Of a stretch of DNA of 64,000 bases, positions 17,669-36,895 are shown one piece after another. The translations under genes were made by a program, and so were the position numbers. The notes under the pieces are model-generated. The model saw only the letters and a list, made by a program, of their open reading frames with translations. It was not told the origin of the DNA and did not search any database. Location: NCBI GenBank assembly GCA_021234155.1, contig JAJEKV010000305.1, forward strand, positions 248,001-312,000, given 5' to 3'. The number at the start of each line of letters is the position of its first letter. Position 1 is the stretch's first letter. Origin of the DNA: Isoetes taiwanensis. Taxonomy: Eukaryota; Streptophyta; Lycopodiopsida; Isoetales; Isoetaceae.

Positions 17669-18304
17669 TCACTTCTCGCCCAAGATTTCAGCAATGGTCT
17701 TTCTGCCTGGTGGAATGGGAGGCATTTTACCCTCCATACTGGTACCATAGTGATGTTCAATACTATCACACAAGAAGTAATATTTCTCCACTGATTCCAT
17801 GCAATCCCATGTGCAGCTCATACCCTTTGGAAACATGGCAATATCTCCAGCTCTGAACTCCAAATATTCCCCATCAGCATTGTCTGGATACACTCTAACC
17901 CTCCCTTCAGTGAGATAGCACATCTCAGCCATATCATATTTCCATGGAAATTTGCTGGCCTTGCAGCTCCATCTTTTCCAAGCAGGAACATCTAAATCAG
18001 CCATGCGATAAGCAGAAGGATTTACCTCAATACGAATGCCATATTTTTCAATCAGATGAGGAGCTGGGGGAGGTTTAGGAGGGTCCTGCATCCTCCGGCG
18101 AGCACTGGCAGACATGTCGCGACTTATTTTGAAAGCAGAAAAACCTGCTGCAGCGCCGCCGACGCCAGTTCCGGCGAGGCCATGGCCAAGCTCCACGCCT
18201 CTGCTAGCAAAACGGAGAGCCGGAATCATATTTCCCCTTGTTAGGAGAGATCCGGCGGGGCACGAAGCCAGCATTGCAGCGCCTGCTAGGGTTCTTGCCG
18301 CCAT
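17669..18304 (-). CDS. Cupin_3 / RmlC-like cupin protein, organelle-targeted
   Basis: An intact single-exon frame of 211 codons. Residues 1 to about 65 are rich in Ala, Gly, Ser and Arg with almost no acidic residues, as in a plastid or mitochondrial transit peptide. Residues about 88-180 match the plant Cupin_3 group related to ureidoglycine aminohydrolase-like cupins: 'YGIRIEVNPSAYRMADLDVP', 'WKYDMAEMCYLTEGRVRVYP', 'FRAGDIAMFPKGMSCTWDC'. This is a small beta-barrel. The classic metal-binding His set of cupin motif 1 is largely replaced, so an enzymatic role is uncertain. The C-terminal 30 residues are Pro-rich and look plant-specific. I chose the ATG at 18302-18304 because the transit peptide begins there and a stop-rich region lies upstream. 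A GTAAGT about 60 nt past the stop (near 17608) could be a 3'-UTR intron donor. Function is not known from sequence. Confidence 0.88.
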   Translation of the reverse strand: MAARTLAGAAMLASCPAGSLLTRGNMIPALRFASRGVELGHGLAGTGVGGAAAGFSAFKISRDMSASARRRMQDPPKPPPAPHLIEKYGIRIEVNPSAYRMADLDVPAWKRWSCKASKFPWKYDMAEMCYLTEGRVRVYPDNADGEYLEFRAGDIAMFPKGMSCTWDCMESVEKYYFLCDSIEHHYGTSMEGKMPPIPPGRKTIAEILGEK

Positions 18305-19728: not shown

Positions 19729-20823
19729 GTTTACGGTAAAATCATCGTCATTGCATGAAGCGTAAATGCCCAATACAATATCACATACAAATACACTCAT
19801 CAAATGAAATGACCTATACACAAAACACAAATCAAACAAGTATGTAAGGTTCAATTCCTCGTACTCGCTATGCATCTGGGCATCTGATCTAGTGGTAACA
19901 CAATGCCAGTGCATGCAATGGACACATCTTACTGCATACATCCATATGGACCATGGATTTACCTCATAAGTCAAAAAATGACTCTCCTCCAAGCATTGCT
20001 AGTAAGCACCTACCAAGGCATCATGTAGCAAACACGTAGGAAAAGCCAACATGTAGAAACTCCAACATGTGGCAACATAAAAAGAAAACCCTACCTCCAA
20101 CCGTAGAGTGAATATAACTAGAAAATTCAATGCCAGCTAGAAAATAACTTAAAATCAAAGTAGTTGGTTACCTTAAATTCAGTAGTTGTCAATAACTTGC
20201 AAAAGCTTTCAGGAATAAAACTTAATTCAAAAAATGAGTCCAGTTCTGAGTCAGGAAATTCCTTGTTCCAAGGATCAACAATATTTTCATATATCAAGCC
20301 CAGCGGCAATGTTTTGGACAATAGTCCATGCATGTGTGTCCAGCCAAATGGCAAACTATGACAAACATCCTTTTCAATTTTTGCAGCAACCCCATAGTGT
20401 CATTGCATAGCGGAAGCTATCTGTTCTTGGTTTCTAAATTCAGCCTGCATTAACATATCCAATCATGAGATATTAATATATTGGATCCTGCTTATTGAAT
20501 AGCCAGAATGCATCATACATCAAATTTTAGCAAATGCAAAAAAACCCCTACCAAGAAAGTTTGGCAGCACTGATAAGACCAATGCACAGAAATGTCATGA
20601 AAAAAACCAGTTTGGACTAGTAAAAACTAGCGCAAACACGCATTGGTCAATCCCTTTGCTGTCTTATCTGGCCATACGAGAACTGTTAAAAGTCCAGGAT
20701 GGTACCATTCTTTCCTGGTATCCAGTTACAAAAATCTTTACTACTATTACAATAAGTCTTAATCAGAAGCCTGGATATTTAATTATCCCCCCCCCCTTTT
20801 TTTTTTAGAGTACGAATTTTTTT
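19729..20823. other. No recognised gene
   Basis: AT-rich DNA without protein similarity that I can recognise. At its right end ten C followed by ten T (about 20787-20806) sit just before the truncated gypsy LTR, marking either a rearrangement point or a difficult assembly spot. Confidence 0.5.
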
Positions 20824-21950
20824 GGTTGATCCGATAGTTAAATCCGAGTTTTCAGCTCTCATTCGATAGGATTCGTATTCATTCTTAGCTATAGGCGACC
20901 CCTACAGCCTAAGAATGATAGGCACTAACAAAGGAACCTAACCATGTATGATTAGGTAGATTAGAATAGGTGTATCCTATTATTTTCAGTTCTGTTGTGA
21001 TGATGTTTTATCATTCTATGCGCCACTCTTGTGTATTGGGAAGGGGGGTAGAGACCCAGAGCCCAAGTAGTTGTATGATCCTAGTTTTAGCCCATTAATT
21101 CCCAATTAATGCGGCCTGTGCATAAGAGCCCGCCTGGTTGTGGGTGGCGGAGCTAGACCGGCTGACAAGGAAGGGCTTGTCTGATCACAGTTGATCCCTC
21201 CGGGGTGCGTAGCGGCAGTAGGGCAACATTGTGGGCTAGGCCTAATACCCGCGCCGCGTGAGGGGGGGTATGGGCTCGACACCTCTTGGGTGATCGTCAT
21301 CTTCTAGGGGTTCAAGTCATATACGAAAGCGGTGGCTCTCTAGCTACTTTGTGATTGGCATGAACCTTCGAGGAGAGTGATCTCCTCCCCGCCTCATCGG
21401 GGAGCTGGGGAGATGCAACCCGGTGGTAGCCCCTTTGGCTATGAACCCGGCAGGGCTGGTCGGGGCTCAATACTTTTCAGCCCTATCCACCCAAAGTATG
21501 CCGGGGGGAGGGCGAATGGAGTGGACTACCCAACGACCATGTTTCTATGCCGCCCAAATCCATTTGCCATGAATTGCATGCGCATTGTTATCCAGGAGAC
21601 CCAAGCCGTCGGTCTTTCCCCAAGAGTTCGAGCCCGGTAGGATTTCCCCATGTTATGTTGATGTCTTGATGTGTTGTTGCAGCTACTATGATATGGTGGA
21701 CCACCCTTCGAGGTGGGTATATTATTGTTGATTGATGTCATGTGCTCATGTGTGTTTACGCTTCCAGCCTAGATCGATCCAGGGAGGCGGAATGAATGAC
21801 ACGTCCATTCTTCCCCGTCGGGTTCTTGGCCACCAAAGAAGAGGCGATGTTAGGTGGACGGCCTCATGTCACGCTGGCGAGATCTTTGGTTTGAGGGATG
21901 ATCTCCGGTTGTATCTGATCGGGGCATCGTATAGGAGCCGGGTCGTCACA
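20824..21950 (+). repeat. 5' LTR, truncated at its 5' end
   Basis: Matches 35764-36895 of the 3' LTR from GGTTGATCCGATAG to the terminal CGTCACA. The first 399 bp of the LTR (counterpart of 35365-35763) are absent and replaced by homopolymer-rich DNA. The first ~230 bp differ from the other LTR at only about one base apart from homopolymer length. The GC-rich middle (21100-21620) differs much more. Confidence 0.92.
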
Positions 21951-21969: not shown

Positions 21970-22205
21970 TTGGCAGACCAAGATGGAGCAGCGGCAATCG
22001 TAATCCTATAGGAACTAACTAATCTAGACATTCAGTCTTGGAGATAAAAGCCCAAGCACGAACCTCGAGTAGTGGGAATTTTTTTTTCCCGGGGTAGAGT
22101 AGTAATTATCTAGAGTTAGGATAATTAGAGAACATAATTAAGATGAAATAGATAGAAGAAAAGTCACCTAGGAAAGCCTAATAAATTTTAGTCACCTTTT
22201 GACCG

Positions 22206-22929
22206 ACACCTCCAAGGGTGCGCCAGGAGCATGTTAGGTCCATATCTAATTGGTCTCCCGCGCACGCTTAGAGGGGTCACCCCAGATAAACCCTAGAATT
22301 CGGCCTTAGGAGCCCTAAATTGTAAAACAAAAGATGGAATCCTATTTAAAAAGCTCGAGTTAGCTAAATTTGTATGCTAAAACACAGAAAAGTAGTAAGT
22401 AAAAATTAAATTTGGAGCAACACCTCTAAGGGTGCGCCAAAACATAGTTAGGTCATGACCTAACACCCTTCTCGCGCACTCTTGGAGGGGTCCCCTAAAA
22501 GTGACTTCAGAATTTGCTCAAAACTTACTCAAAGTATAAAAGTAATGGTAGAATCTTACTTAAAGTGCTGAAATTAGAGGGAAACGCATGTTAACATGTG
22601 TAAATTCGAAAAGTTTAGACCAGAAAGGGGCAACACCCAGGGATCGAAAAAGTGGGGGTTAGGCTCGAGGATTGCCGGTTAAAATTCTTATTTTTCGGTT
22701 GACACTTTTGCATGCCGGGAAAAAAACTGGTAGCAAAAATAGAGTTTATAGGTAAAATCTAGTATTTTTGAGCTTTACTATGAAGGAAATCTAGTATACA
22801 CTAACATATACCGGCAAATTTTCTGGTTGTATCTGTAATATTTTTCGAACCATGGCAACACCTCTAAGGGTGCGCCAGGGCATAGTTAGGTCCGGACCTA
22901 ACACCCTTCTCGCGCACTCTTGGAGGGGT
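22206..22929 (+). repeat. Hairpin-forming leader repeats 1-3
   Basis: Three copies of a ~73-bp unit lie at 22206-22278, 22419-22492 and 22858-22929. Each starts ACACCTCYAAGGGTGCGCC and ends CGCGCACKCTTRGAGGGGT, arms that are reverse complements of each other. In copies 2 and 3 an inner perfect palindrome occupies the loop: TTAGGTCATGACCTAA (22448-22463) and TTAGGTCCGGACCTAA (22886-22901). Copies 1 and 2 start 213 bp apart. The DNA between the copies is not alike. They lie in the leader upstream of the H3-like frame. Possible roles are RNA packaging or dimerisation, or a protein-binding or insulator site; none is proven. Confidence 0.85.
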
Positions 22930-23035
22930 TGAAGGAAAATGGTTGAAGAAGACTCCACTTTGATTCAAGGTGGGGAGAATTTCGCTAGCAAACCAACAAA
23001 ATGACCAATTCGGCCAAACCCTAAAAATTGAACCC

Positions 23036-23042
23036 TATAAAT
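23036..23042 (+). promoter_or_regulatory. TATA box before the H3-like ORF
   Basis: TATAAAT in CCCTATAAATTAG, 111 bp upstream of the ATG at 23147. It is preceded by AAACCCTAAAAATT and followed about 40 bp later by GTTGTTCTTC and GGCGATCTTC. The same arrangement recurs at 24.9 kb, supporting it as a real internal promoter. Confidence 0.6.
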
Positions 23043-23146
23043 TAGTAGACTTAGGCCTCATTTTTAGGGTTTCCCACGTTGTTCTTCAAGCTCGTCCCGA
23101 TAGGCGATCTTCTGGCGCCCTGCTCCAAATCGATCGCTGTCAAACA

Positions 23147-24331
23147 ATGGCTAGAACGAAACAGACCGCTCGTAAGGTAAGCAAAGATGATAAGCCCAGC
23201 GCCCAAGTCCTCGCCGCCGAGCAGAAACTCAAGGATGCTGAGGAGAAATTGAAGCACGACATGGAGAGGCGACCTAGGTACTACCGGAATTTGGAAAAGA
23301 GGCGGAAGAAAGAAGAAAAAGCCAAGAAGAAAGAAGAGAAGGCAAAGAGAAGAGAGGAAAAGGCCAAGAGGAGGGAGGAGAAGGCAAGAAGGAAGGCAGA
23401 AAAAGAAGCCGCAGGAGACGAAGAAGACCAATGGCGCGAGCGAAGGACAAAGAGCAGGGAAGAACCCGACAGGAAGGGCAAGAAGGTAATGACAGAAGAG
23501 CCCCCGCCTAAGAAGAGGAGGACCTCGGTCGGCGTCGTCATCGGCGAACGAACCGAAGGCGACCAACCTTCATCCTCGTCTGAAGATGCCGGTGATTTGC
23601 AGGACTTTTTGGAGGAAGTGCTTTTAGGAACTGGAGAATCCTCGCAGAAGCAGTAGAACCCTCATCCTGAGACAGATGAACCCCAAGAGGAGGACCCACT
23701 TCCAGCCCAGGGCCCGGCAGAAACGCAAGTTGAGCTACCCCCGCCAATGCCTCCACCGTTTTCAGAATGGCAAGAGGCAAAGAAGCTAGGTGAGGAGAAA
23801 GCAGCCGCAAAGAAGGCGAACAAAACGGCCAGGGACTCGTACACCTTAGGGCCCGAGAGGAGATACAAGAAAGAGCTAGCAGATTACACAATATACAAGA
23901 AGATGCACGCCAAGTACACTGCCTACTACGAGGCACACAGGGTAAAGTATATCGAAGGAGGGCGGCCAACACCAGAGATATTCCAGCTGAAACCTCCACC
24001 AGAGCTTCCGGACCCCCCGAAGAAACCCATGAAAAGATCCCAAGACTCCCCGTTTGCGAGAGCCCTGCGAGAAATCCGGCACTTCCAACGGAGTTACGGA
24101 TTTCTGATTCCCAGAGCTGCATTCCAGAGGTTCGTCCGGGAAATTTTATGGGACTTCGACCCCAACAAGCGAGTAACTAACGACATGTTACTCGCTTTAC
24201 AAGAAGCAGCAGAGATGGAAGTCGTACAACACTTCGAGGATTCACTGGCATGCACGCTCCATGCAAAAAGAGTCACGCTTCAACCAAAGGATATGAGACT
24301 GGCCAAATACATTAAGAGGACAAATAAATAG
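23147..24331 (+). CDS. Histone H3-like protein of a gypsy element (one in-frame TAG)
   Basis: One frame of 394 codons interrupted only by TAG at 23654-23656 (codon 170). The ATG context CAAACAATGGCT is strong. Residues 1-10 are M-ARTKQTARK, identical to histone H3 1-9, so the H3 sites R2, T3, K4, R8 and K9 are present; S10 is Val. Residues about 28-90 form a Lys/Glu/Arg-rich helix with AKRREE repeats, probably coiled coil. PPPKKRR (119-125) resembles the SV40 nuclear signal, and PSSSSEDAGD (141-150) is acidic. A Pro-rich stretch follows the TAG. Residues about 304-392 are an H3 histone fold without gaps: 'ALREIRHFQRS' (alpha-N), 'FQRFVREILWDF' (alpha-1), 'LALQEAAE' with 'FEDSLACTLHAKRVT' (alpha-2) and 'PKDMRLAKYI' (alpha-3). 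By eye about half of some 88 positions equal canonical H3. Cys110, His113, Lys115, Arg116, Thr118, Lys122, Asp123, Leu126 and Ile130 are kept; Arg129 is Tyr. Loop 1 has canonical length, unlike CENH3. The frame is better preserved than pol. Whether TAG is a mutation, an error or read through is open. Confidence 0.9.
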
Positions 24332-24468
24332 AGCAGAAGCTACCTTTTTTGTAACTAACAGGCTTATATGGAATGTATAAAATTTTGAATGAAAAGGATA
24401 TATAGTTGTTTAAACGTGCATTGGATTAAGTATAGTAGTAGTTAAGGAGCAAATGTCAAATTTTGGCC

Positions 24469-24755
24469 AACACCTCTAAGGGTGCGCCAGGGCACAGTTA
24501 GGTCTGAACCTAACACCCTCCTCACGCACTCTTAGAGGGGTCCAGCCAACTGGGCCCTTGATCAGCCACTTACCTGCTCCAAATGAAGTAAATAAGCAAA
24601 GAAACTTGCAGTTAAGAAGAAAATAAGTAGGAATTCACGTCTTTGAACTTGTTCTTGACACCCATTAGGCATAGATAGGCCAACACCTCCAAGAGTGCAC
24701 CCGAGGCCACTTAGGTCCCAACCTAACACCCTCCTCGCGCACTCTTAGAGGGGTC
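24469..24755 (+). repeat. Hairpin-forming leader repeats 4-5
   Basis: Two further copies of the unit described at 22206 lie downstream of the H3-like frame, at 24469-24542 and 24683-24755, starting 214 bp apart (copies 1 and 2 start 213 bp apart). In copy 4 the arms CTCTAAG and CTTAGAG pair perfectly; in copy 5 the change to CTCCAAGAGTGC on the left matches GCACTCTTAGAG on the right with one G-U pair. The inner TTAGGTC....ACCTAA is present with imperfect centres. Confidence 0.85.
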
Positions 24756-24934
24756 CGACCTTTCAAGGTCCATAACTTGTGCTAGACATATCCAATTCGG
24801 TCAAAAGTTGTTGCATTAGAACCCTAAAATTGTATACAATCCATTTTAGCTCCAAATTAACCTAGAAACAACAAACTTCATCTCAATATGCCAAAAGTTT
24901 TAGAAACCCTAAAAATTTTAGGGTACAAGACCCC

Positions 24935-24942
24935 TATAAATA
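24935..24942 (+). promoter_or_regulatory. TATA box of the second internal promoter module
   Basis: TATAAATA in CCCCTATAAATACCC. As at 23036, AAACCCTAAAAATT precedes it and GTTGTTCCTCG...GGCGATCTTCC follows, 39 bp downstream. It probably serves the ORF starting near 25.0 kb. Confidence 0.6.
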
Positions 24943-24990: not shown

Positions 24991-25356
24991 AAGGCGATCT
25001 TCCAAAACCTCCTTAAGCGCTTCCAGCCTCCGTTTGATATCGGTAAAGACTCCTCCTCATGGCTACCTCTATCCTTCATCACCTGGTACAACGCCTCTCC
25101 CCACATTGCCGAGGTAGATGTTAACCTAGTATTCCAAGTTTTCCGTAAAGAATTTGACTTGTCCTTAACCCCGAACTCAAACCCGTTCTACCAACAAGTT
25201 CGTAAGAATTCCAAGAGACAAGAGCTCCTAGCTTGCAAGAAGTACCCCATGCATAGGGTACTTTGTACCAAAGACTGTATTGCAAAACGTTCTTTAGTCA
25301 CATACCCAACATTGCTAAACCGCCGCATTAGAACCGAAAGCCACCCAACTACATGA
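24991..25356 (+). CDS. Unrecognised ORF behind the second promoter module
   Basis: An open frame of about 120 codons ends with a stop after 'RRIRTESHPTT' at 25356. It includes 'WLPLSFITWYNASPHIAEVD' and 'VFQVFRKEFDLSLTPNSNPF'. It has no in-frame ATG. ATGGCT at 25059, in a context like that of the H3-like start, opens a different frame, so one indel near 25060-25120 may have split the original N-terminus. I cannot assign a family. It is not one of the standard retroviral domains and shows no histone-fold signature. Confidence 0.4.
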   Translation, partial: KAIFQNLLKRFQPPFDIGKDSSSWLPLSFITWYNASPHIAEVDVNLVFQVFRKEFDLSLTPNSNPFYQQVRKNSKRQELLACKKYPMHRVLCTKDCIAKRSLVTYPTLLNRRIRTESHPTT

Positions 25357-26839
25357 CCCCTCGAAAGCGCATTAGAAAGAGATTTTTCTCTTACAACACG
25401 CCCCTTATCACTATATTTATTCTATAGGGCCCAAACCCGTGGTAGGTGAACCATCAATCCAGCCCACTAGAGGTCACACCCTTTGACGCAGCAATGGACC
25501 TAACAACTACCGCTTGAGTACCTAAGAGGCCATAGCAAATCATCCGGAGGAAAGTGAGGACACGTAAGAAGAAAGCGGGGAAGAAGAAATGGAAGTGGAC
25601 TCAAAAGAAGAACGCCGAGAAGCGTAACGTGATGTTACCCGATTGCCGACAGAGCACACCGAGGATTTTAAACCAATTGGGCCGGGAATAACAAGTCTAG
25701 CAATCGATTATAGTCGAGGGGCAGGAATATCCGCTCCTAAACCATATTAAAACCTTCCCAATGCGGGGACGTTATCGCGCCGACTAACTCCTTCACCTTC
25801 TACCGCAAAATGCCGGACTTAGAGGATTTCATCGACTAAGAAACAGATGACTTTCCAAGTGTAAGAAAGCAAAGAACATACATGTGACACAACATGTCGA
25901 TATCGGGGCCTCATAGCACTATCGTCGAGGCATGATGACGAAGAGCAACTCCCTACACGAAGAGGAGGAGTTTGTGGCACCCAAGAGCAGATGGGAATAA
26001 GGGGAAAGACAACAAGAGCAATCGCTACCGTAATCTTCTTCACAAGTACCATTACCAACGCTCCAAGGGAGAGCCACGAACTTAACAAGTGTACTTAACG
26101 CTTCTTCCATGATTAATAAGAATTAGTTCAAGCACGGCCGACAAAGATGCATCAAGGCATGTGTCCACTGGAGCACGGGGGAGGGATACCCCGAAAGACT
26201 TAAATACTATCTTCCGCTCCCAACGCATCGTAGGATAATAGTATTTCATAAGCTTTTCAGCCCACGAGGAGAGAAGAAGCCGCGGTGATGCCGATAGCAC
26301 TATCGATTTGGCATGCACGCCGCGGCCATCGTAAAAAGTCTAACCATGTAATTTTGGTGAAGGGAGGACACCTTGAGCATTTTCGACCAGGGTACCCCCA
26401 CCTTCGACAAGGTAGGTTGGCGAATAGCAGCTCATACCCGATAGACGGGTCGAAGAGCTAGCCTTAGCTATCCCGAGGGGATCATCGAGGATATATCCTA
26501 ACTTGGGACGCATGCTGGTACGCCCAAGTGAGGAAATTCCTTGAGGATCACCCATCCCATCAAGAAATCTATGTAATGAAAATCATGACTATTGTATTAA
26601 GTTAATATATATCGGCTATATATTAATAAAAATATAAGATCTTTTGAATTGCATTTTAAATGTCTTTTTGATATCTTTGTCGTAACAATCGTATCATTCA
26701 AACTCTTAATGCAACCAACAAGAGAACTCATGATAAATGGTGCCAATGCAATATGTGCAGCTAGAACAGCCAGGAATGTCGAAATTGAATTCCAAGCCCA
26801 AGGCAGAAAGCAGACACCACCGGACAATTCCAGTTTCGG
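25357..26839 (+). other. Degenerate inner part of the gypsy element
   Basis: No intact gene. Short coding-like pieces remain, for example an acidic stretch 'SGEEEMEVDSKEERREA' near 25575-25625 and 'NSFTFYRKMPDLEDFID' near 25780-25840. Stops are frequent in all frames. It may be the decayed C-terminal part of the preceding ORF plus the N-terminal part of gag. Confidence 0.45.
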
Positions 26840-27595
26840 AATCTGTTCGAAGAGTATTACGCACCTACGCCAGAGGAGGAAATCTCGCAGATGAGGTCAG
26901 ATCTGCAAGAAATAAAAGCCATGTTAGCCGGCAGGGGAAATAACAGCGTGATCGAACGCGTAAGCCCCGTGAGGCCCGCTTTCAACACAAAGGAAAGGAA
27001 AGAAAGAGGAGCCGGGCGCAGCTTCTTCTAGCTCCAATTTTCGATAGCTCGACTCAAGCTCTGGGTCTGAGAAAGAAACAGAAAGGACCGCCCGAAGGGA
27101 AGAAAGGATAAGGGTGAGACAGCCAAGCCAATCCGATTACCAGAAAAAAGTCGATTCGGCCTTGAGTAATGTTTGGAAAGCCCGCAGCCGGAACAGCCCG
27201 CGAAAATGATCGTGGATGGAAGTCGGGCATGGCTAGACGAAATGAGCGAATATAGAAATGCTTACGGCATGAAGGATAAGGATAAGGGCAGAGTAGCCAC
27301 CGCTAACTTGAAAGGGGCAGCCCGTATTTGGTGGAGGGGCTATGCCAAAGCCCACGGAATGAGCAGAGACAAGTGCAGGTTCTCAAAGTTTGCGAAGGCC
27401 TTCAAACGACACTATGTGCCAAGAGAGCACAAGTGCCATCAAATGCAAGCATTCCACAGGTTGCAACAGGGGAACAAATCTGTACAGAAATATACGAAGG
27501 AGTTCATGAGGTTGAGGCTTTATGTGCCAAAACTCAGTGAGAGAAGAGCGGTGGAAGGCTATGTGGAGGGCGTGAATGAAGAACTACGGAATTAG
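26840..27595 (+). pseudogene. Ty3/gypsy Gag
   Basis: The first piece, 'EEYYAPTPEEEISQMRSDLQ' followed by EIKAMLAGRG (about 26845-26940), has the coiled-coil look of a gag N-terminus. The main piece 27173-27595 is a Retrotrans_gag domain with 'LKGAARIWWRGYAKAHG', 'FSKFAKAFKRHYVPREH', 'FHRLQQGNKSVQKYTKEF' and 'LSERRAVEGYVEGVNEEL'. Stops and frame changes between 26990 and 27170 separate the two. No CCHC zinc knuckle is visible downstream (27600-28080), where it would be expected. Gag forms the virus-like particle of the element. Confidence 0.85.
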
Positions 27596-28089: not shown

Positions 28090-30226
28090 AATAATATCCA
28101 CGATTGGTAAGATAGCCGCCAAATCCTTTATAGTCCTCATAGACTGTGGCAGTTCCCACAATTTTGCATCACCAAGGATGGCCGAAATGCTAAAGTTGAA
28201 AACAGTGAAGTCTAAGCCCAGGCCAGTAGTGTTAGCTAGTGGAACCATCAGGCACACTGTCGGCAAGAGGGTGGATTTCAATATAGACTTACCTGGCATC
28301 AATATTGAAATGGGGGCAGAGATCATGAACATCGGAAAATATGACCTCATCATAGGTATGGAATATCTCCACCCAGCAAAAGCACAAATAGATTGTGGGG
28401 AGTTTAAAGGTGAAGCTAACTACCAACCGGAAGATTATAGAAATCTGGGTAAGCAAGTAACACCTATAATGCAATGCATGTCGAGTAAGAAGTTACATAG
28501 ATGCATCAAAAGGGAGCAAGTTGCATACATCTTCAAATTAGAGCTTGCCGAAGAAGAGGCACCAGAGGATAAAGAAGATAAATCAGTGAGCAAGCTACCC
28601 AAGCAGATAGCTAAGCTAATAAAAGAGTTCCATGACTCGTTTCCCGATGAAATCAAGGAACTTCCACCATATAGAGGAATGGAGTGCGAGATTGCACTCG
28701 AACCAGGCACCAAGCCCACAAGTAAGGCACCGTATAGAATGACGGCTCACGAACTATCAGAGTTGAAGAAGCAATTGCAAGAGCTATTAGACCTAGGGTT
28801 CATAAGGCCTAGTGTCTCTCCGTTCGGAGCCCCCATCTTATTCGTCAAGAAGGATGGAAGCTTGAGGATGTGTATTGACTACCGTCAATTAAACAAAAAC
28901 ACCATCAAGAACAAGTATGCCTTACCAAGAGCAGATGACCTGATGGATCAGTTACAAGGTGCCAGAGTCTTCTCCAAAATAGACTTAAGATCTGGATATC
29001 ATCAAATCAGAATCAAGGAGGAAGATATCCACAAAACGGCGTTTCGAACAAGATATGGCCACTACGAATTCACAGTGATGCCATTTGGCCTATCTAATGC
29101 CCCAGCAACGTTCATGAGACTCTGAACGATATCTTTCGGGAATTCCTTGACACATTTGTTATCGTGTTCTTCGATGACATTTTGGTGTATAGCAAGTCCC
29201 TAGAGGAGCATATTCAGCATTTGAGAAGGGTACTTGAGAAGCTGAGAAGACATCGACTTTGGCGCTAAGTTGTCAAAATGTCACTTCGCCAATCGAAAAG
29301 AGTGGAATACTTGGGGCATATTATATCGCCAGACGGCATCTCCAATCGATCCCGAAAGATCCAAGCATTGATTGAATGGCCAGCACCAAAGAACATACAC
29401 GAGGTGAGAAGCTTTTTGGGCTTAGCAGGATATTATAGAAAGTTTGTCAAGAACTTTGCTAAGATAGCAGCACCTTTGACGGACCTCACCAAGGCAGAGA
29501 AGATAAAAGACTGGGTGGCACATTGGCAAAAGAAGGCTCAAGCAGGATTTGAGAAGTTAAAGGAAGCCTTAACAACCACTGCCTTAACATTGCCCCGATC
29601 CGTAGAAGGACAAGCTAGTTGCAACCGATGCTAGCAAGATTGCGGCGGAGCAGCCTTAATGCAAGAAGAAAGAGTTGTAGCATACGATTCACGGAAGATG
29701 AACCACGCAGAGACTCGCTACACCCGACACATGATCGAGCTATTGGCAAGAGTAAGAGCTTTAAAGATCCGGAGACACTATCTATTGGGAAGGAAGTTCC
29801 ATTAGATATCGATCATCGAGTCTACAATACATCTTCACGCAACCATTGCTGAATTTGAGACAAAGAAGATGGATGGAGTTCCTGGAAGAGTACGATTTTG
29901 AGATTGTGTACAAGCCAGGGAAACTCAATGTGGTTGCAGATGCTCTGTCAAGACATCCCTTAACAACAAGAGTGCATTGCAATGCCATATCAACACTCAC
30001 CAGTGAGTTTGGCAAGAAAATAGAAGAAACGTTGCCAACGGACAAGGACTTCCAGGAAGTATGGGCAAGCCTTTCTAAAGAGGCAAGAACGGACAAAGAG
30101 AGAGAAACCTTCAAACATTTTAAGAAGGAGGGAAATCTCTTGTACTATAAGAATAAGTTGTGTGTGCCAGAATCATCTGGAGTCAGAAGGTTGATTCTCC
30201 ACGACACCCACAAATGTAATCAATAG
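28090..30226 (+). pseudogene. Ty3/gypsy Pol: protease, RT, RNase H
   Basis: The protease begins near 28100. Its catalytic motif reads L-I-D-C-G-S-S (Asp codon 28142) instead of D-T/S-G, followed by '[10 protein letters not shown]'. RT follows in the same frame: '[20 protein letters not shown]', '[18 protein letters not shown]', '[15 protein letters not shown]', '[13 protein letters not shown]'. A one-base loss at about 29124 shifts the frame before '[12 protein letters not shown]' (catalytic FxDD, about 29160-29190). Another shift near 29265 precedes 'VEYLGHIISPDG' and 'FLGLAGYYRKFVKNF'. RNase H remains as 'ERVVAYDSRKMNHAETRY' and 'EFLEEYDFEIVYKPGKLN' with 'VVADALSRHP' (29640-29960), again across frames. 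The integrase zinc-finger start 'RRLILHDTH' ends the last open piece. Clear family, dead copy. Confidence 0.93.
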
Positions 30227-31515
30227 CCGGCCACGCAGGTTTTACAAAACCTACTTCAAGATAAGGAGTAGTTACTATTGGCCGTGCATGAAGAAGCAGA
30301 TAGCAAGGTATATACGCCGAAGTGTCCAAAATTTATGTCACAGACCAAAGCGAGCAACTACGAATTCGGGGCATTAGAGCCATTGCCGCACCAAACTCCA
30401 AGTGGGAGATAATTAGCATGGACTTCATTACATGTGGCTCCCTAGAACCATAAGGGGCAAAGACGCCTTTAATGGTCGTGAGTCGACAAATTGTCGAAAA
30501 TGGCGACTTTGTGCCTTGTAGAAGCACCGACACGGCTTTGGACAATACGTGTTATTTACAAAGGAGATTTTTAGACTCCATGGGATGCCAAGAGAAATAA
30601 TCTTTGATCGGATTCAAGTTCATGAGTGCATTCTCGCAGATCTCTTCAAGACCATCGAACGAAATTATCGATGAGCTCGGCTTATCACCCTCGACCGATG
30701 GGCGACGGGAGCACTCAATCAGATACTTGAAGATATGTTATGGAACTATGTCCGGAACAAGCAATCAAAGTGGGATGACTTCATTTACTTGGTTGAGTTT
30801 ACATACAATAGCACCAAGCGGTGAGTCATCCCAAATGTCGCCGCTTATGATCAACTACGGCCATCAATTGTTTGACACCGACACTTGGCACAACCCCGCG
30901 GTCCAAGGTAGAAGTATCCCGCCAGATGTTAGCCGAGATGCAACAATTGGTTGAGGAGGTGAGAGGATACCTCTTAGCAGCAAGAAGCTTCAGGCAAAGA
31001 GCATAGCTGATCGGCACCGAACAAGAAGGGAGTTCAAAGTAGGGGACAATGTTTGGCTGAAGATAAAAGTCAAACAAGCAAAGCTCCGCGATCGGCAATT
31101 GCAAGAAGCTTGCTCCAAGGTGGGCTGGTCCATTCAAAATTGTCAAAAGAGTGGGCAACCAAGCCTACAAATTAGACTTACCAAAGACACCTAAAGATCC
31201 ATAGAGTCTTTCACGTAAGTCTCCTAAAGAAACACACTCCTAATCCGGAGGAAGTATTGGAGACACCGAAGCCATCGAAATTAATCGGACGATCAGCTTG
31301 AGATTGTCCCCGAGCTTCTTCTCGAACCGATCCTATAAGAAGACGAGAAGATCTCAATTTCTCCAAGCACTTTGTGAAATGGACGCACTTACCGCTGGAA
31401 GACGCACGCGGGTACTACAATCGATCTTGAGAAGCACCCACAATTCATGGAGCAATGCAAGGGTCGCCTCGTCACCGAAGTAGTCGACTCCGAACCAATG
31501 GGGGAGTGAGGTAAT
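30227..31515 (+). pseudogene. Ty3/gypsy integrase with C-terminal chromodomain
   Basis: Broken into many short frames. Recognisable pieces are 'LSKMATLCLVEAPTRL' (core, about 30495-30540), a 'SSAYHPR' segment of the DDE core (about 30680), 'WNYVRNKQSKWDDFIYLVEF' (about 30740-30800), 'LAPRWAGPFKIVKRVGNQAY' (about 31105-31165) and 'HRVFHVSLLKKHTP' (about 31200-31240). At 31370-31505 'FVKWTHLPLEDA' and, after one frame change, 'DLEKHPQFMEQCKGRLVTEV' look like a chromodomain (W in LVKW, acidic LPLEDATWE-like helix start). Chromodomains of chromoviruses bind methylated histone H3 and steer integration to heterochromatin. Here the aromatic cage cannot be judged fully because of the frame break. Confidence 0.8.
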
Positions 31516-35364: not shown

Positions 35365-36895
35365 TGTGACGTTCCAGAATAATATACGGTATGAATACGT
35401 ATATTATACTGACACGTCACTAGTACATGTCGACTCAGACGACATGTACACAGCGACCATAAAAGGGAAGTACCCTAAGGCCACATGTGAATATAATACC
35501 TTTTGCCATGTGGCAATAGCCCATTGACCAAAAGGGCCCAGCCCTAAAATCGTGGGGATAAAGGGACATAAACCCTAAAAGGGAAACCTTTTCGGTTTCT
35601 AGCCCCTATAAGTCGGATTGAGCAAAGACTGGACGCTTTTCACCTGAACAAGCTTGAGAGGAACCGAATTTCTGTTAACCGATCGGGCCAAAGCCAATCT
35701 CGGAGATCCAAAGAAGATGGATGCCTCTCGGAGGAGTGGGAGCCAGCCAAGAAGCGGGTTAGTGGTTGATCCGATAGTTAAAGCCGAGTTTTCAGCTCTC
35801 ATTCGATAGGATTCGTATTCATTCTTAGCTATAGGCGACCCCTACAGCCTAAGAATGATAGGCACTAACAAAGGAACCTAACCATGTATGATTAGGTAGA
35901 TTAGAATAGGTGTATCCTATTATTTTCAGTTCTGTTGTGATGATGTTTTATCATTCTATGCGCCACTCTTTGTGTATTGGGAAGGGGGGGTAGAGACTCG
36001 AGCCCAAGTAGTTGTATGATCCTAGTTTTAGCCCATTAATTCCCCACCACGCGCTCGGTGCATAAGAGCCCGCCCGGTTGTGGGTGGCTGAGCTAGACCG
36101 CCGACAAGGAAGGGCTTGTTCGGGATCACGATTGATCCCTCCGGTGCGTAGCGACGCCGGGAACATTGTGGGCTAGGCCTAATACCCCACCGCACCGCGT
36201 GAGGGCGGTGGTATGGGCTCGACACCTCTTGGGTGATGCGCCATCTTCTAGGGGTTCAAGTCATATACGAGCAAAGGGCTCTCTAGTCGCCTGCGGATTG
36301 GCATGAACCTTCGGAGGAGAGTGATCTCCTCCCGCCTCATCGGGAGCCGGGAGATGCAACCGGTAGTAGCCCCTTTGGCTATGAACCCAAGCAGTTACTC
36401 TGGCCAGCCCAATACTTTTCAGCCTATCCGCAAAGTATGCAATGTGAGGGGCGGATGGAGTGGACTACCCAATCCACCATGTTTCTATGCCGCCCAAATC
36501 CATTTGCCATGAATTCGCCTCGCATTGTTATCCCGGAGACCCAAGCCGCCGGGCCTTTTCCCCAAGAGTCTGAGCCTGGATAGGATTTCCCCATGTTATG
36601 TTGATGTACTGATGTGTTGTTGCAGCTACTATGATATGGTGGACCACCCTTCGAGGTGGGTATATTATTGTTGATTGATGTCATGTGCTCATGTGTGTTT
36701 ATGCTTCCGCAGCTAGATCGATCCCGAGGGAGACGGGATGAATGACACGTCCATTCTTCCCCGTCGGGTTCTTGGCCACCAGCAAGAGCCCGATGTTAGG
36801 TGGACGACCTCATGTCAGCGAGCAGATGCTGGTTTGAGGGATGATCTCCAGTTTGTATACGATCGGGGCATCGTATAGGAGCTGGGGCCGTCACA
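35365..36895 (+). repeat. 3' LTR, complete
   Basis: 1531 bp from TGTGACGTTCCAG to CGTCACA, bounded by the PPT on the left. It contains the 1.13-kb stretch shared with the 5' LTR plus 399 bp missing there. A likely TATA element has not been assigned with confidence; CCCTATAAGTCG at about 35605 is a candidate. Confidence 0.92.

What the first reader, a model, noticed from the sequence alone, without database searches (positions are those of the whole stretch)
23147..24331. A retrotransposon-encoded histone H3: exact H3 tail plus H3 fold in one ORF
Inside a gypsy element, between PBS and gag, one frame starts M-ARTKQTARK (identical to H3 residues 1-9) and ends in an ungapped H3 histone fold about half identical to canonical H3, separated by a charged linker of about 290 residues with a PPPKKRR nuclear signal. 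Known plant LTR elements carry chromodomains, but I know of none that carries its own H3. The K4/K9 sites in the tail and the tetramer residues (Cys110, His113, Asp123, Leu126, Ile130) are kept, so it could be modified like H3 and enter or poison nucleosomes. It might mark element DNA, decoy silencing enzymes or help target heterochromatin. The role is inference; the sequence identity is direct.
Basis: partly seen in the sequence, partly recalled or inferred. Interest (0 to 1): 0.98.

Follow-up and report, generated by a model that had tools for sequence, protein, structure and literature searches.

The report
Retrotransposon family carrying histone H3
A large family of jumping genes (Ty3/gypsy retrotransposons) in a plant genome carries its own gene for a long, altered histone H3, and selection has kept both the H3 tail and the H3 fold, so the jumping gene probably uses it to act on the host's chromatin.

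Summary
At 23147-24331 the frame starts MARTKQTARK and ends in an H3 fold (Pfam Histone E 7e-23; PDB H3.3 E 3e-21). This copy has one in-frame stop and sits in an old Ty3/gypsy element.
The host genome (1.66 Gb) holds many copies. Of 150 scored matches to the second part (9,547 candidates) 108 lack a stop. The tail's codon pattern occurs 1,051 times, its control 0. In 20 of 20 wide loci gag follows the H3 gene; in 17 the LTR precedes it.
Among 33 intact ORFs dN/dS in subfamily A is 0.02 (tail), 0.16 (linker), 0.05 (fold); subfamily B is similar. Residue 10 is never Ser (0 of 40).
A TATA box about 111 bp before the ATG (46 of 52) and covarying hairpins suggest an own promoter. A third subfamily joins another N-terminal domain to an H3 fold.
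Best reading: a conserved accessory H3 variant that pairs with H4 and shows an H3 tail to chromatin enzymes; the role is inference. Nearest precedent: a fungal hAT transposon (PMC3538342). I found no LTR-element H3 in print.

The parts
20823..21950 (+). 5' LTR
   Evidence: 89.3% identical to 35763-36895 over 1157 columns, 49 gap openings; same LTR upstream of the H3 ORF in 17 of 20 other copies
22198..22931 (+). three upstream hairpin repeats of about 75 bp (22198-22279, 22418-22493, 22855-22931)
   Evidence: covarying stem between subfamilies A and B
23036..23041 (+). TATA box 111 bp upstream of the H3 ATG, with an AACCCTAA-type motif nearby in most copies
   Evidence: position read; TATA in 46 of 52 copies, 14% expected; AACCCTAA in 49 of 52, under 1% expected
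23147..23653 (+). H3 fusion ORF, first part: MARTKQTARK tail (23147-23176) and Lys/Glu-rich linker with PPPKKRR
   Evidence: dN/dS tail 0.02, linker 0.16 among genomic copies of subfamily A
23654..23656 (+). in-frame TAG stop of this copy
23657..24331 (+). H3 fusion ORF, second part: rest of linker and H3 fold (about 24014-24328)
   Evidence: PF00125 E 6.8e-23; PDB H3.3 E 3.1e-21; fold model matches nucleosomal H3
24466..24756 (+). two downstream hairpin repeats (24466-24543, 24680-24756)
24935..24940 (+). TATA box upstream of second accessory ORF
   Evidence: read by eye; TATA at -119 of the ORF2 ATG in 12 of 13 copies
25059..26600 (+). second accessory gene (ORF2), broken in this copy, about 504 aa in two intact copies; no Pfam match
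27173..27595 (+). gag (Retrotrans_gag, Ty3_capsid)
28178..31506 (+). pol with several frame breaks: RVT_1, RNase H, integrase C-terminal SH3
35763..36895 (+). 3' LTR

Best explanation
A lineage of Ty3/gypsy retrotransposons took up a plant histone H3-class gene and turned it into an accessory gene between the 5' LTR and gag. The gene probably has its own TATA promoter, separate from the LTR. Its product of about 395 residues has the exact H3 tail up to Lys9, a long charged linker and an H3 fold. Shown: the anatomy, many copies, two subfamilies with both tail and fold plus a third with a fold only, and purifying selection on tail and fold. Inferred: the protein enters the nucleus, pairs with H4 as an H3 variant, and enters or caps nucleosome-like particles. 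The linker would hold an H3-like N-terminus away from the particle, where Lys4/Lys9 enzymes and readers can bind it but the Ser10 phosphorylation switch cannot act. The element would thereby weaken or redirect heterochromatin on its own copies, or mark sites for integration.
For: Histone fold. Copies. Element context in 17-20 of 20 loci. dN/dS of 33 intact ORFs (26 A, 7 B): tail 0.022 and 0, linker 0.162 and 0.165, fold 0.053 and 0.075; synonymous differences saturated between A and B (fold pS 0.985) while fold pN is 0.20. Gag of wide loci: 0.038 (9 A) and 0.104 (7 B). The fold keeps 26 of 27 (A), 25 of 27 (B) and 26 of 27 (C) sites that are 95% conserved among 242 database proteins, 16, 13 and 35 of 36 middling sites, and 2, 4 and 13 of 21 variable sites. 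Residue 10 is P or V in 40 of 40 perfect tails. TATA. Hairpins: 6 of 19 pairs with compensatory changes in 13 repeats.
Against: No expression, localisation or binding data. A and B have Pro in place of R63 and, by alignment, lack the H3 residues just before the fold (that these touch DNA is recalled), so a normal nucleosome is not assured. Subfamily C (4 loci) has an H3 fold without the H3 tail and without a TATA box within 200 bp, so tail and promoter are not universal in the lineage. 6 of 52 copies lack the TATA box. The loci are among the best-scoring protein matches, which favours conserved copies. The window copy is itself broken.
Confidence: 0.5

Rival explanations
1. Histone-tail decoy: the protein works mainly as a soluble H3-tail mimic that occupies H3K9/H3K4 writers and readers; the fold only dimerises with H4 or stabilises the protein.
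For: The tail is the most constrained part (dN/dS 0.02 in A, 0 in B) and identity to H3 ends exactly at K9 while the following residues differ between subfamilies.
Against: The fold is nearly as constrained (0.05) and keeps near-invariant sites; subfamily C keeps a fold closer still to H3 with no H3 tail.
Confidence: 0.25
2. Centromere or heterochromatin targeting: the fold is CENH3-derived and directs the element to centromeric chromatin.
For: 9 CENH3-type against 6 H3-type matches at 39 discriminating sites; A+B beside plant CENH3 in the tree with support 91/78.
Against: 24 of the 39 sites match neither; loop 1 lacks the extra residue of the plant CENH3s compared; the tree tool flags long branches meeting; one clade of A+B+C is not rejected (p-AU 0.10).
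Confidence: 0.1
3. Nucleic-acid packaging: the basic protein condenses element cDNA or RNA in the particle or the pre-integration complex.
For: Lysine-rich linker; gene lies upstream of gag.
Against: Does not need an exact H3 N-terminus or H3-specific sites, both kept; probable separate promoter.
Confidence: 0.1
4. Passive gene capture without function, amplified by hitch-hiking.
For: Plant LTR elements do pick up host gene pieces (PMC7264820, passages seen).
Against: dN/dS 0 to 0.08 for tail and fold at high synonymous divergence in separate subfamilies; conserved TATA spacing.
Confidence: 0.03
5. Assembly artefact or host H3 gene next to an element by chance.
For: The window assembly shows many small gaps between its LTRs.
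Against: Same order and spacing in 17-20 of 20 loci on many contigs.
Confidence: 0.01

Closest known systems
H3L in a hAT DNA transposon of the fungus Pyrenophora tritici-repentis (Manning et al. 2013, PMC3538342; passages read)
   Same: A mobile element carries an H3-like gene in many copies (26 H3L genes in the reference genome)
   Different: DNA transposon, nearly identical copies (four full-length variants differing by one residue); the passages seen describe no long tail-linker-fold fusion, diverged subfamilies or selection test
Viral histones, e.g. bracovirus H4, single viral H3s, medusavirus and clandestinovirus H3-like, nudivirus Orf1 with an H4-H3 doublet at the end of a 1111-residue protein (review PMC9145170; passages read)
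   Same: A parasite encodes a core histone; some have long unrelated N-terminal parts
   Different: In the passages seen all are DNA viruses or virus-derived; words beginning 'retro' occur 0 times in that review
Captured domains of plant Ty3/gypsy elements (PMD, G-patch, AIR1, B3, 2-ODD and others; PMC9289625, section 12 read in full)
   Same: Extra conserved gene in a gypsy lineage, multi-copy
   Different: That screen of 121 angiosperm genomes reports 15 domains; the section names nine of them and no histone; the figures with the rest were not seen
Chromodomain of chromoviruses (PMC6317226, passages)
   Same: Element-encoded chromatin module; type I binds methylated H3K9
   Different: A reader of histone marks (partner of type II unknown); here the element encodes the H3 itself
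Plant CENH3 / H3.3
   Same: Same fold class; 47 of 105 (H3.3 P0151) and 51 of 105 (CENH3 P0120) aligned residues identical
   Different: About 290-residue linker, Ser10 lost, Pro for R63, carried by a retroelement

Membership tests
Histone H3 family | H3-type histone fold | tested here: met
   PF00125 far above its cut-off; H3 best in PDB; 26 of 27 near-invariant sites kept in subfamily A; fold match
Histone H3 family | H3 N-terminal tail | tested here: inconclusive
   Residues 1-9 exact in 40 of 60 loci of A and B; residue 10 onwards not H3; absent in the 4 C loci
Histone H3 family | Pairs with H4 and enters nucleosomes | not testable with these tools
   Needs biochemistry
CENH3 | Longer loop 1 of plant CENH3 | tested here: not met
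   Loop 1 has H3 length (three plant CENH3s compared)
CENH3 | Centromere localisation | not testable with these tools
   none
Ty3/gypsy (Metaviridae) LTR element | LTR, gag, RT, RNase H, integrase in gypsy order | tested here: met
   (RVT_1, RT_RNaseH, SH3_Tf2-1); LTR-H3-ORF2-gag in other copies; the one integrase-core piece scanned gave no integrase match
Chromovirus | Chromodomain after integrase | tested here: inconclusive
   Chromodomain-like peptide by eye at 31302-31506 but 0 Pfam families there and in the matching piece of L075; frames broken
Pyrenophora hAT-H3L | hAT DNA transposon | tested here: not met
   The element has LTRs, gag and RT

The most novel reading that the evidence does not exclude
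A retrotransposon lineage encodes its own histone H3 variant and lays it on chromatin: a selfish element writes part of the host's nucleosome code, using an H3 tail that can carry the silencing mark at Lys9 but lacks the Ser10 switch, to escape or exploit heterochromatin. Because tail and fold are maintained in diverged subfamilies, H3 would here be a lasting replication gene of the element.
Probability: 0.4. Interest if true: 0.98.

Novelty: new variant of a known kind. Interest (0 to 1): 0.94.

Why it matters
Mobile elements are silenced through marks on H3 tails. An abundant, selected element-borne H3 would mean that a retrotransposon lineage competes with its host at the level of the nucleosome itself. 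It would give a natural test of which H3 residues matter for silencing (K4/K9 kept, S10 lost, R63 lost), a plant counterpart to viral histones, and a possible source of new histone variants for host genomes.

Tried and rejected
Intron idea: the K9 codon is followed by GTAAGC in the window, so I considered that the linker is an intron between an H3.3 first exon and the fold. Rejected: the linker shows codon structure and dN/dS 0.16, and most other copies have other residues after K9. I did not establish where plant H3.3 introns lie.

Relatives elsewhere: three searches of 5.8 billion proteins listed 120 of 675, 120 of 134 and 3 of 3 hits; the listed hits cover at most 57, 41 and 45% of their queries, that is the fold region, and none was recognised as carrying this linker. 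One search scored only 8,000 candidates. Six metagenomic proteins of 388-433 aa with MARTKQTARK, a different linker and an H3 fold (P0167, P0191, P0198, P0216, P0220, P0224) look like analogues; in the host genome the 99 scored matches of P0191 lie within residues 292-424, the fold end. Viral contigs gave nothing. Rfam and tRNA scans of the window gave nothing. A first structure model without alignment was poor.

Lineage of the fold: the trees do not settle H3.3 or CENH3 origin, nor one or two captures; several rows meant for the second tree fell out at my cut of the fold (31 rows left). A host CENH3 in one exon was not found with P0120: the best of 150 scored matches were element-type long frames at 62% identity or less, beside ordinary H3. 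A chromodomain could not be confirmed. L074, fetched as the pol end of one copy, showed no recognisable pol by eye, so only L075 was usable.

Full report
What is in the window. The frame 23147-24331 reads MARTKQTARK, a lysine/glutamate-rich linker with PPPKKRR, one TAG (23654-23656), more linker and a C-terminal H3 fold. The second part matches Pfam Histone at E 6.8e-23 and no other family at E 0.01, and solved H3.3 at E 3.1e-21 over 92 ungapped columns. The linker gave no match at E 0.1 or better in Pfam. An AlphaFold model from an alignment of 44 rows has pLDDT about 95 over the three helices of the fold (mean 78 for the whole piece), and Foldseek's 50 listed matches are H3 chains of nucleosome, octamer or related entries (419 matches at E <= 0.001; target TM 0.61-0.80 among the 50). 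The H3 stretch lies between a 5' LTR (20823-21950) and gag (27173-27595), with RT, RNase H and integrase-end pieces downstream and the 3' LTR at 35763-36895. This copy is old: its LTRs are 89.3% identical and pol is broken by frameshifts; part of that may be assembly error.

It is a large family. The host genome (1,658,258,908 bases, 1,110 contigs; unnamed; taken as a plant because its best H3 gene is 98% identical to a plant H3.3) was searched with the 224-residue second part. The tool scored 150 of 9,547 candidates. Identities of copies other than the window run from 54 to 97%, and 108 of 150 have no stop inside the matched stretch (my count of the table). The degenerate 30-base pattern for MARTKQTARK occurs 516 + 535 = 1,051 times; the reversed control occurs 0 times. 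A search with plant H3.3 shows 15 full-length ordinary H3 genes (93-98% identity) among 150 scored matches, and six of six loci read from the tail list are not ordinary H3. So the great majority of the tails are probably not ordinary H3 genes; intron-split H3 genes were not counted.

I fetched 60 of the 150 places (20 with wide flanks, 40 at ORF level). 36 of 60 have an open frame of at least 375 codons from the tail; in 40 of 60 the best tail is a perfect MARTKQTARK. Two subfamilies appear: A (window-like) and B (55-59% identical to the window's second part; tail mostly followed by VMPPGY). In the 20 wide loci, gag is downstream in 20 and the window's LTR upstream in 17 (11 of 13 A; 6 of 7 B, at about 70% identity). 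So the H3 gene belongs to the element and stayed in place while LTRs diverged.

Selection. I dropped L060, L061 and L062 (frame breaks) and used 33 ORFs (26 A, 7 B). Nei-Gojobori dN/dS, pooled over pairs: A (325 pairs) tail 0.022, linker 0.162, fold 0.053; B (21 pairs) tail 0, linker 0.165, fold 0.075. Between A and B synonymous sites are saturated (fold pS 0.985), so no ratio could be formed; fold pN is 0.20. Gag of wide loci gives 0.038 (9 A) and 0.104 (7 B), ORF2 0.192 (8 A) and 0.116 (5 B). Pairs are not independent, and the loci are the best protein matches, which favours conserved copies; but low dN at high dS is not expected of neutral copies. In subfamily C the fold gives 0.016-0.053 in the three of six pairs that can be computed.

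What is kept. Against 242 database proteins (the hits), A, B and C keep 26, 25 and 26 of 27 near-invariant fold sites, 16, 13 and 35 of 36 middling sites and 2, 4 and 13 of 21 variable sites. C110, H113, K115, R116, D123, L126, A127, I130 and R83 are the commonest residues in all three; R63 is Pro in A and B; E105 is Gly in C (roles of these residues are recalled). The identity of the tail to H3 ends at K9: the next residue is P (24) or V (16) in 40 of 40 perfect tails, never Ser, and the six loci picked by the tail pattern have R, P, P, A, P, Y. Those six are decayed beyond the tail, and they were chosen for a perfect tail, so they say nothing on tail conservation.

Regulation. Of 52 copies with enough upstream sequence, 46 have a TATA box (14% expected from shuffles), 45 of them at 107-114 bp before the H3 ATG as in the window (111 bp); L011 has it at -84. 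One also lies at -119 of the ORF2 ATG in 12 of 13 copies found. AACCCTAA lies in the same stretch in 40 of 43 A and 9 of 9 B copies (under 1% expected); that this motif (telo box) marks promoters of dividing cells is recalled. Hairpin repeats of about 75 bp flank the H3 gene in A and B. I aligned 13 of the 19 located in the window, L014, L022 and L027; 6 of 19 consensus pairs show compensatory changes. In the window alone, 5 repeats showed none. Folded singly, 14 repeats of L014, L022 and L027 gave z from -1.8 to -4.0; the weakest, in L022, folds differently and was left out of the alignment. The A and B leaders do not align by blastn. This points to a separate transcript for H3 and one for ORF2; no RNA evidence is at hand.

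Subfamily C. Four loci chosen carry ORFs of 409-451 aa with another N-terminal domain and a C-terminal H3 fold. Both wide ones (L069, L070) have short LTR-like matches upstream; L070 also has a gag piece (65% over 80 aa) and an ORF2 relative (24% identity, E 1e-5); L069 showed no gag match. None of the four has a TATA box within 200 bp. In a fold tree of 31 rows A+B are one group (100/99) and C sits beside H3.3; one clade for all is not rejected (p-AU 0.10), and the A+B join with CENH3 (91/78) may be long-branch attraction. Origin from H3.3 or CENH3, and one or two captures, stay open.

How it may work. Shown: element-borne, multi-copy, conserved H3 tail and fold, conserved promoter-like layout. 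Inferred: a nuclear protein that pairs with H4, with an H3 N-terminus on a long charged tether. The loss of Ser10 next to a kept Lys9 would allow methyl-mark writing and reading without the phospho-switch (recalled biology). I favour an H3 variant acting on element chromatin; a soluble decoy is the main rival.

Known work. Eight literature searches aimed at histones in mobile elements (searches found 0 papers) in an open-licence library listed no paper whose title or abstract start reports an LTR element with a histone; I saw capped listings and opened few papers. Two more searches were on introns and on histone mimicry. The nearest are a fungal hAT transposon with H3L genes (PMC3538342, passages), viral histones (PMC9145170, passages) and a screen of 121 angiosperm genomes for extra domains in LTR elements, whose section on results names nine of its 15 domains and no histone (PMC9289625, section 12; figures not seen). 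Most subscription papers and bioRxiv preprints are not covered.

Noticed in passing
window 25059-26600; L022:2085-3596 (minus strand): Second accessory gene (ORF2), 504-506 aa in two intact B copies, MATSSFKRWYSAT..., between H3 and gag in A and B with a weak relative in C; no Pfam match; dN/dS 0.12-0.19; own TATA box at -119 in 12 of 13.
   Followed up: partly
window 22198-24756 (five repeats); L014, L022, L027: Strong 75-bp hairpin repeats flank the H3 gene in both subfamilies and covary between them; possible protein-binding palindromes or RNA hairpins.
   Followed up: partly
L069, L070, L071, L072: Third subfamily: an unknown N-terminal domain of about 300 residues fused to an H3 fold close to plant H3, with E105 changed to G and no H3 tail; one search lists many more long open frames with such folds.
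   Followed up: partly
P0167, P0191, P0198, P0216, P0220, P0224, P0229: Metagenomic proteins of 388-433 aa with MARTKQTARK, a long linker and an H3 fold; the first six form one family (57-88% identity to P0191). Source organism unknown; worth checking for mobile-element context.
   Followed up: no
L076-L081: Further, decayed H3-tail copies with other linkers, suggesting more and older subfamilies.
   Followed up: no
window 17669-18304 minus: EutQ-like cupin ORF (PF05899), an apparently ordinary gene near the element.
   Followed up: no
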